A DNA stretch of 14,891 bases from Betaproteobacteria bacterium (GTDB lineage: Bacteria > Bdellovibrionota_B > Oligoflexia > Silvanigrellales > Silvanigrellaceae), in the NCBI GenBank assembly GCA_016868315.1, contig VGHE01000020.1, positions 1 through 14,891 on the forward strand. The letters run 5' to 3'. Position 1 is the stretch's first letter, and each line of letters opens with the position of its first letter. This document shows positions 8,699 to 9,949 of this stretch, one piece after another. Below the pieces are notes generated by a model, which ran no database searches, was not told the DNA's origin, and saw only the letters and a program-made list of their open reading frames with translations. The position numbers were made by a program, and so were the translations under genes.

Positions 8699-9454
8699 AT
8701 GGAGATGTTAAGTATTTTCCAGTATTCATTGATATATAATGCGTTCTCTTTTGCGCTTGCTGCGATGGGAGCAGCGACCCTATTTCTTTGGTTTGGACGC
8801 TCTCAGGTTTCAGACCACTATAAAACAGCAGTCACAATTTCTGGATTGGTGTGTGCTATTGCAACATACCACTACCTGAGAATCTTCGAGAGCTGGGAGG
8901 CTGCCTACCAGGTAAAAGATGGCGTTTTGAGCGCCACAGGTGTGGCATTTAATGATGCCTATCGATACGTCGACTGGCTTCTCACAGTGCCTCTCCTGCT
9001 CGTCGAGCTTGTTCTCGTGATGCGCTTGAGCCGCGAAGAAACAGCGAGCAAGGCCAAGAAGTTGGGCTTTGCTGCAGCGCTGATGATTATTCTGGGTTAT
9101 CCGGGAGAAATCGCAGCTGACGTTCCCACAAGAGCACTTTGGGGCACACTCTCTGCACTTCCATTTTTGTATATCATCTGGGAATTGTACCGCGGCCTCG
9201 GCGAATCCATCGAGCGTCAGCCTGCAAATGTGCGTGAACTCATCAAGAAGGCCCGTCTGTTGACCTTGGCCTCCTGGGGCTTTTATCCAATTGTTTTTAT
9301 GGCTCCCTACATCAATATTTCGGGTGGTACGGCTCAAACAACCATTCAAGTGGGATATACAATCGCCGACCTGGTGGCGAAGGCAGTGTTTGGAATTGTG
9401 ATCTGGATGATTGCGGTTCAGAAATCTGAAGCCGAGAAGTCCGGGAATCACTGA
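8699..9454 (+). CDS. Proton-pumping rhodopsin of the xanthorhodopsin/Gloeobacter type
   Basis: Seven-helix inner-membrane retinal protein, 251 residues, light-driven outward proton pump by its residues. In helix C, R89, D92 (proton acceptor), T96 and E103 (donor) form the DTE set within RYVDWLLTVPLLLVELVLV; Leu100 at the spectral-tuning position predicts green absorption. H58 in helix B is the His that pairs with the acceptor Asp. D224 and Schiff-base Lys228 lie in GYTIADLVAKA of helix G. Spacing D92-G149-K228 (57 and 136) equals that of Gloeobacter rhodopsin D121-G178-K257, and H58-D92 (34) equals H87-D121. Gly149 in TRALWG therefore matches the glycine that opens the carotenoid-binding fenestration. 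Helices lie at about 8-32, 42-64, 84-108, 122-137, 145-165, 186-206 and 216-240. No retinal-forming gene (blh) is in the window. Confidence 0.96.
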   Translation: MEMLSIFQYSLIYNAFSFALAAMGAATLFLWFGRSQVSDHYKTAVTISGLVCAIATYHYLRIFESWEAAYQVKDGVLSATGVAFNDAYRYVDWLLTVPLLLVELVLVMRLSREETASKAKKLGFAAALMIILGYPGEIAADVPTRALWGTLSALPFLYIIWELYRGLGESIERQPANVRELIKKARLLTLASWGFYPIVFMAPYINISGGTAQTTIQVGYTIADLVAKAVFGIVIWMIAVQKSEAEKSGNH

Positions 9455-9473
9455 GTTAAGCTCGCCTTCTGAT

Positions 9474-9507
9474 TGCAGTGCATCCGTATCATTGCGGGTG
9501 CGCTGCA
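9474..9507 (+). repeat. Hairpin downstream of the rhodopsin gene
   Basis: GCAGTGCATCC (9475-9485) and GGGTGCGCTGC (9496-9506) pair over 11 bp with two G-U pairs, extended by T9474-A9507, around a 10-nt loop. It starts 20 nt after the rhodopsin stop. A C-rich stretch, not a T-tract, follows. It may mark the 3' end of the rhodopsin mRNA. The two G-U pairs mean that the stem is weaker on the other strand. Confidence 0.4.
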
Positions 9508-9595
9508 GACCCTCCTCCAGCGCGTCATAATTCAGACACGTCTACTCATTCTCGCCCGGGGCGATTCCGAACCTTCGGTAACGGGGGTGGAGCAC

Positions 9596-9949
9596 ATGGA
9601 TGTGCGCGAACGATCGGTTTTGATCATCACTCTGGTGGCCTCAAACGCTGCCCTGGCTTCAGATTTTCATGAAAGTCTGAAGCCAGGCGTTGTTTGCTCA
9701 TCTGACCAAAATCCCTCGAGATTTCAGATTCTGGAAAGCCCAGCATTCGACGGATTTTTCAATATCACCGAAGGTTTATGCAAGGCTTTGCCGATAGAAG
9801 AAGAGTTGGATTCGACTCTGTTCACAGTAGGGCACTGCATGCTCGACGATGGACAGCAGTTCGCCTTCTTATTCGGAGGCTGGCTGAACATGCTGACGGT
9901 GCGTTTCGATGAAAGAGATGAAGCCCAAGATTTGTTTTGTCACGAGTAG
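9596..9949 (+). CDS. Small secreted four-cysteine protein
   Basis: Hypothetical exported protein of 117 residues. The start at ATG 9596 is chosen because it gives a proper signal peptide (MDVRERSVLIITLVASNAALA, with a cleavage-type ALA before SDF); the frame remains open upstream from a TTG at 9473 but that extension has no signal-like character and overlaps the hairpin. GGAG lies at 9589-9592. The mature part has about 96 residues and four Cys (VVCSS, GLCKA, GHCML, LFCHE), enough for two disulfides, which fits a periplasmic or secreted location. No known family recognised. The next lipoprotein gene begins 12 nt later, so the two are probably co-transcribed and may act together. Confidence 0.65.
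   Translation: MDVRERSVLIITLVASNAALASDFHESLKPGVVCSSDQNPSRFQILESPAFDGFFNITEGLCKALPIEEELDSTLFTVGHCMLDDGQQFAFLFGGWLNMLTVRFDERDEAQDLFCHE

What the first reader, a model, noticed from the sequence alone, without database searches (positions are those of the whole stretch)
8699..9454. Proton-pump rhodopsin with a carotenoid-antenna fenestration glycine
The protein has the complete DTE proton-pump set (D92, T96, E103), Schiff-base K228 and, at the exact spacing of Gloeobacter rhodopsin G178, a glycine (G149). In most proteorhodopsins a bulky residue blocks this place; in xanthorhodopsin and Gloeobacter rhodopsin the glycine lets a keto- or hydroxy-carotenoid pass light energy to retinal. If the host is a predatory or Oligoflexia-like bacterium, a light-driven pump with an antenna would be an unusual energy strategy for that group.
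Basis: partly seen in the sequence, partly recalled or inferred. Interest (0 to 1): 0.65.

Follow-up and report, generated by a model that had tools for sequence, protein, structure and literature searches.

The report
Light-driven proton pump without retinal genes
This bacterium has a genuine light-powered proton pump whose gene derives from freshwater alphaproteobacteria, but we found no genes in its genome for making retinal or carotenoids, so it probably takes up the light-absorbing pigment from other organisms; the carotenoid-antenna slot is real but inherited, and ordinary for this family.

Summary
ORF 8699-9454 encodes a 251-aa xanthorhodopsin-type pump with D92, T96, E103, K228 and a glycine, G149, exactly at GR G178, XR G156 and Kin4B8 G153. 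The glycine is not special to this protein: all 79 aligned alphaproteobacterial relatives have it, and one 71%-identical relative is a strain of Sphingomonas glacialis, whose XR (strain AAP5) is reported to carry nostoxanthin. The interpretation needs changing. (1) The gene nests inside a Sphingomonadales clade, so it was probably acquired horizontally. [quoted passage not shown] (3) The host genome (95% complete) has no detectable blh, phytoene synthase, RPE65-type oxygenase or lycopene cyclase, and no true phytoene desaturase. Its two congeners also carry rhodopsins and lack these genes. In 76 of 80 relatives blh sits beside the rhodopsin; here it does not. (4) The gene is under strong purifying selection, so it is probably used. 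Best reading: a working proton pump loaded with retinal from outside, with any antenna also scavenged. Retinal-scavenging rhodopsins have been proposed before (Saccharibacteria), and Oligoflexia MAGs are listed in one published table of phototrophy-gene-bearing MAGs.

The parts
8699..9454 (+). xanthorhodopsin-type proton-pumping rhodopsin gene, 251 aa
8688..8694 (+). Shine-Dalgarno AGGAGGT, 4 nt before the ATG
   Evidence: read from sequence
8972..8974 (+). D92 codon, Schiff-base counterion / proton acceptor position
   Evidence: 80/80 D in window plus relatives
8984..8986 (+). T96 codon of the DTE motif
   Evidence: 80/80 T
9005..9007 (+). E103 codon, proton donor position
   Evidence: 80/80 E
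9143..9145 (+). G149 codon (GGC), fenestration glycine = GR G178 / XR G156 / Kin4B8 G153
9296..9298 (+). F200 codon (TTT) at the position of XR Y207 / Kin4B8 Y204, reported Tyr in all known carotenoid-binding rhodopsins
9308..9310 (+). Y204 codon at the position of XR M211 / Kin4B8 S208, floor of the carotenoid site
9380..9382 (+). K228 codon, retinal Schiff-base lysine
   Evidence: 80/80 K
9473..9949 (+). downstream neighbour of the rhodopsin: no Pfam family; stands where the relatives have blh. A start at ATG 9597 with a signal-peptide-like N-terminus is more likely than the listed TTG (inference)

Best explanation
A horizontally acquired xanthorhodopsin that works as an outward light-driven proton pump in a host that cannot make its own chromophore by any known route. 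The rhodopsin gene came from the Sphingomonadales and ended up without the adjacent blh gene. Retinal is taken from outside (environment, neighbours or prey), reaches the apoprotein through the membrane and forms the Schiff base with K228. Light then drives protons outward through D92 and E103 and adds to the proton-motive force. The fenestration at G149 is kept; any antenna carotenoid would also have to come from outside. Shown here: sequence, motif, fold, ancestry, gene absences within the limits of the searches, selection. Inferred: pumping, uptake of retinal, source of retinal, antenna use.
For: Pump motif and Schiff-base lysine complete; model matches psXR (Z 34.8), XR (34.4) and zeaxanthin-bound Kin4B8 (33.3). 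Nested in a Sphingomonadales clade, sister to L011 with support 92/92. In 76 of 80 relatives a BCD/blh frame lies beside the rhodopsin (six checked by Pfam); in the window it does not. Own genome: no BCD, no phytoene synthase, no RPE65, no lycopene cyclase, best CrtI-like hit 78.5 bits against a cut-off of 238.1. The same searches found these families in other genomes of the class. Both congeners carry a rhodopsin and lack blh and phytoene synthase; G048's is a separate proteorhodopsin lineage. Purifying selection: window versus G049, dN 0.10 against dS 1.57 over 99 codons. The contig belongs to the genus: eight stretches match G049 at 66-80% DNA identity. Precedent: Saccharibacteria rhodopsins in genomes lacking blh bind added retinal within 30 s (PMC9296517).
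Against: No retinal transporter or uptake mechanism was identified. GR, a close structural relative, takes up retinal slowly (>20 min, PMC9296517). Aurantimicrobium minutum makes retinal without known retinal genes (PMC7734400), so absence of blh is not proof, although that bacterium has carotenoid genes. The genome is 94.8% complete, so genes could fall in gaps, though hardly the whole set in three species. The six-frame family search is limited by its first look.
Confidence: 0.62

Rival explanations
1. Retinal is made inside the cell by an unknown pathway, as shown for Aurantimicrobium minutum.
For: Precedent PMC7734400; purifying selection suggests the gene is used. A FAD oxidoreductase distantly related to CrtI and carotenoid isomerase exists at G000:C5.
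Against: A. minutum keeps carotenoid genes; here phytoene synthase, the entry step to C40 carotenoids, is not found in three genomes. The C5 oxidoreductase is far below the family cut-off (93.5 against 238.1 bits).
Confidence: 0.1
2. One reading: a pump with an antenna, supplied by the host's own retinal and carotenoid genes, which the assembly gaps or the searches missed.
For: Genome 94.8% complete in 27 contigs, so some genes are missing. G149 present. XR of Sphingomonas glacialis AAP5 uses nostoxanthin (PMC12308411).
Against: The set is missing in three congeners of 93-98% completeness. Donor-type blh is not found in any of the three (without a positive control of its own).
Confidence: 0.12
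3. The gene is a non-functional relic left after loss of blh.
For: No chromophore genes found.
Against: Intact frame, all functional residues, strong Shine-Dalgarno, dN/dS about 0.07 between two host species.
Confidence: 0.05
4. The contig is contamination from a sphingomonad or other bacterium.
For: The rhodopsin is up to 82% identical to sphingomonad proteins; the contig is only 14.9 kb.
Against: Other genes of the contig match congeners G049 and G048. The nearest rhodopsin over the shared 99 residues is in G049 (88%; G049's best sphingomonad match is 77%). GC and GC3 match the neighbouring genes.
Confidence: 0.03
5. A variant of the main reading: the pump works with scavenged retinal but cannot hold a carotenoid, because Phe200 lacks the hydroxyl of the conserved Tyr and Tyr204 fills the floor of the site.
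For: Residues; Kin4B8 S208A cuts zeaxanthin binding to 2% and Y204 is reported conserved (PMC12308411).
Against: Tyr204 is shared with most relatives, including the S. glacialis strain L019, of a species reported to bind nostoxanthin. Sister L011 also has Phe200 and keeps blh. Only Y204A, not Y204F, was made in Kin4B8, and it was unstable.
Confidence: 0.3

Closest known systems
Sphingomonadales xanthorhodopsins (group of Sphingomonas glacialis AAP5 XR; L002-L081)
   Same: 66-82% identity, same pump residues, fenestration glycine, mostly Tyr204; the AAP5 protein is reported to carry nostoxanthin (PMC12308411)
   Different: They have blh beside the rhodopsin (76/80) and mostly Tyr at position 200 (76/79); the window protein has Phe200, Leu190 for Phe, and no blh found in the genome
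Gloeobacter rhodopsin (6nwd) and psXR (9wfa)
   Same: about 50-53% identity, gap-free alignment through the antenna site, GR G178 = G149
   Different: GR has Tyr at F200 and Met at Y204; GR binds keto-carotenoids (literature)
Xanthorhodopsin of Salinibacter ruber (3ddl) and Kin4B8 (8i2z)
   Same: fold, DTE motif, fenestration glycine
   Different: Y207/Y204 replaced by Phe200; floor residue Met/Ser replaced by Tyr204; Asn191/188 replaced by Lys184
Saccharibacteria rhodopsins (SacR)
   Same: proton pump in genomes without blh, proposed to use retinal from other organisms (PMC9296517)
   Different: DTS rather than DTE motif, different rhodopsin clade, episymbiotic host group

Membership tests
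Microbial (type 1) rhodopsin | Seven-helix fold of PF01036 | tested here: met
   PF01036 6.9e-40; model pLDDT 92.3; XR match Z 34.4
Microbial (type 1) rhodopsin | Schiff-base lysine in the last helix | tested here: met
   K228 aligned to all references
Xanthorhodopsin-type proton pump | DTE motif | tested here: met
   D92, T96, E103
Xanthorhodopsin-type proton pump | Groups with XR, GR and Kin4B8, apart from proteorhodopsins | tested here: met
   Branch 100/100 separates the two sets
Xanthorhodopsin-type proton pump | Light-driven proton transport | not testable with these tools
   needs expression
Carotenoid-antenna rhodopsin | Glycine at XR 156 | tested here: met
   G149
Carotenoid-antenna rhodopsin | Tyrosine at XR 207, reported conserved in all known carotenoid binders | tested here: not met
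   F200 in window and in G049; criterion from PMC12308411
Carotenoid-antenna rhodopsin | A carotenoid supply made by the host | tested here: not met
   no phytoene synthase in G000, G048, G049; no lycopene cyclase in G000, only 40-residue stubs in the congeners. A supply from outside is not excluded
Carotenoid-antenna rhodopsin | Bound carotenoid with energy transfer to retinal | not testable with these tools
   needs spectroscopy
Self-sufficient rhodopsin photosystem | blh/brp or RPE65-type retinal-forming oxygenase in the genome | tested here: not met
   the family searches were positive in other genomes of the class

The most novel reading that the evidence does not exclude
A predatory or bacteria-associated genus that twice and independently acquired light-driven pumps and runs them on chromophores, retinal and perhaps antenna carotenoids, taken from the bacteria it eats or lives beside.
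Probability: 0.22. Interest if true: 0.75.

Novelty: new member of a known kind. Interest (0 to 1): 0.42.

Why it matters
Three species of one genus carry rhodopsins of two separate origins, and none has a detectable route to retinal or carotenoids. Other rhodopsin carriers in the class nearly all keep blh and phytoene synthase. This makes the genus a clean test of whether bacteria share or steal retinal, an open question raised for Saccharibacteria. It also shows that a fenestration glycine alone is poor evidence for an antenna in the host.

Tried and rejected
Plasmid tblastn with the TIGR02147 protein, meant to name the host, gave nothing. 'Phylum' returned the same 58 genomes as 'class', so a wider survey was not possible. 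The weak CrtI-like hit at G000:C5 was fetched and classed as a distant FAD oxidoreductase, not a phytoene desaturase. The blh search in the genus with the donor protein had no positive control of its own. Contamination was considered and rejected. No paper was found that reports this rhodopsin in this group with its chromophore genes examined; only the held library was searched.

Full report
What is there. The window is the whole of contig C20 (14,891 bases) of a 3.24 Mb genome in 27 contigs, 94.8% complete. At 8699-9454 on the + strand lies a single open frame of 251 aa with a strong Shine-Dalgarno sequence four bases before its ATG. It is a microbial rhodopsin (PF01036, 6.9e-40). Its nearest solved relatives are psXR, Gloeobacter rhodopsin, xanthorhodopsin and Kin4B8. 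The AlphaFold2 model (pLDDT 92.3, pTM 0.89) overlays psXR at 1.1 A, XR at 1.5 A and zeaxanthin-bound Kin4B8 at 1.5 A over 245-248 residues.

D92, T96, E103 and K228 align with the references and are invariant among the aligned alphaproteobacterial relatives. G149 is GR G178, XR G156 and Kin4B8 G153. All 79 aligned alphaproteobacterial relatives have glycine there, so the residue is inherited family anatomy. The proteorhodopsins GPR and 4jq6 have F and W, but 9jov and the congener's rhodopsin have G.

The antenna site in detail. A study of Kin4B8 names the glycine as the first criterion for carotenoid binding and a tyrosine (XR Y207, Kin4B8 Y204), conserved in all known carotenoid-binding rhodopsins, as the second; it also finds that S208A cuts zeaxanthin binding to 2% (PMC12308411). 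In the window protein these positions are Phe200 and Tyr204. Phe200 also occurs in the congener G049 and in the sister sequence L011; 76 of 79 relatives keep Tyr. Tyr204 is common in the relatives (64 of 79), including L019, a strain of Sphingomonas glacialis; strain AAP5 of that species is reported to carry nostoxanthin on its XR. So binding of a hydroxylated carotenoid is possible, but one published criterion is not met.

Ancestry. In a maximum-likelihood tree the protein sits inside a Sphingomonadales clade, next to L011 (support 92/92) and near L002-L012. Rhodopsins of other families in the same phylum fall elsewhere: those of f13 form their own group among the XR references, and two of f8 (L082, L083) group with proteorhodopsins. 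Acquisition by horizontal transfer is the simplest reading. Contamination is unlikely: other stretches of the contig match congeners G049 and G048; over the 99 residues available the rhodopsin is 88% identical to that of G049, while G049's best sphingomonad match is 77%; base composition agrees with the neighbouring genes. The G049 copy has a different downstream neighbour, a DUF4143 protein.

The missing chromophore. In 76 of 80 relatives a blh-like frame lies beside the rhodopsin, nearly always directly downstream (six checked by Pfam). Two of the four exceptions are contigs that end within about 250 bases of the rhodopsin. In the window the next gene has no Pfam family. Genome-wide, no blh, no phytoene synthase, no RPE65-type oxygenase and no lycopene cyclase were found; the best CrtI-like frame scores far below the family cut-off. 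The same searches found these families in other genomes of the class. Congeners G048 (93% complete) and G049 (98%) also have a rhodopsin and also lack blh and phytoene synthase. Among the seven other rhodopsin carriers of the class, six have blh and six have phytoene synthase. G048's rhodopsin belongs to a separate proteorhodopsin lineage, so the pattern holds for two rhodopsins of different origin.

Is it used? Between the window and G049 genes dN is 0.10 and dS 1.57 over 99 codons (dS is near saturation, so the ratio of about 0.07 is approximate). That is strong purifying selection in the new host, hard to explain for a dead opsin.

Mechanism. I conclude that it is most likely a light-driven outward proton pump charged with retinal from outside. 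Precedents: Saccharibacteria rhodopsins in genomes without blh, which bind added retinal within 30 s (PMC9296517), and Aurantimicrobium minutum, which makes retinal without known retinal genes but does keep carotenoid genes (PMC7734400). The source of retinal, an uptake route and antenna use are inferences. Whether the host is a predator could not be tested.

Known or new. XR pumps, fenestration glycines and blh-less rhodopsins are all known, and a survey of a Greenland glacier lists Oligoflexia MAGs among MAGs with phototrophy genes (PMC7701988). The rhodopsin-type columns of that table were not readable here. The new element is the consistent absence of chromophore genes across a genus with pumps of two origins.

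Noticed in passing
L096:268-2367 (G015:C5), also G018, G039, G040, G042, G043: The gene beside the rhodopsin in other families of the same phylum is a ~680-710 aa fusion of lycopene cyclase (PF05834) and beta-carotene dioxygenase (PF15461), so one polypeptide would make and cleave beta-carotene (G018's copy is cut by contig ends). One search of the held library found no paper that reports it.
   Followed up: partly
G017:C60 (L089, rhodopsin at 1501-2187): A very divergent rhodopsin with DTE motif, fenestration glycine and Phe at XR 207, in a genome with phytoene synthase but no blh found.
   Followed up: no
G040:C2:26746-27279 (L091, L092): A second, weakly matching rhodopsin-like frame that lacks the middle part of the profile.
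   Followed up: no
window 9652-9687: A perfect 16-pair hairpin with a 4-base loop about 200 bases after the rhodopsin stop, inside the start of the next reading frame.
   Followed up: no
L147 (G048:C36): The congener's proteorhodopsin lies beside a Kef-like Na+/H+ exchanger with TrkA-N domain and a flavodoxin-fold gene, i.e. proton-coupled ion transport.
   Followed up: partly
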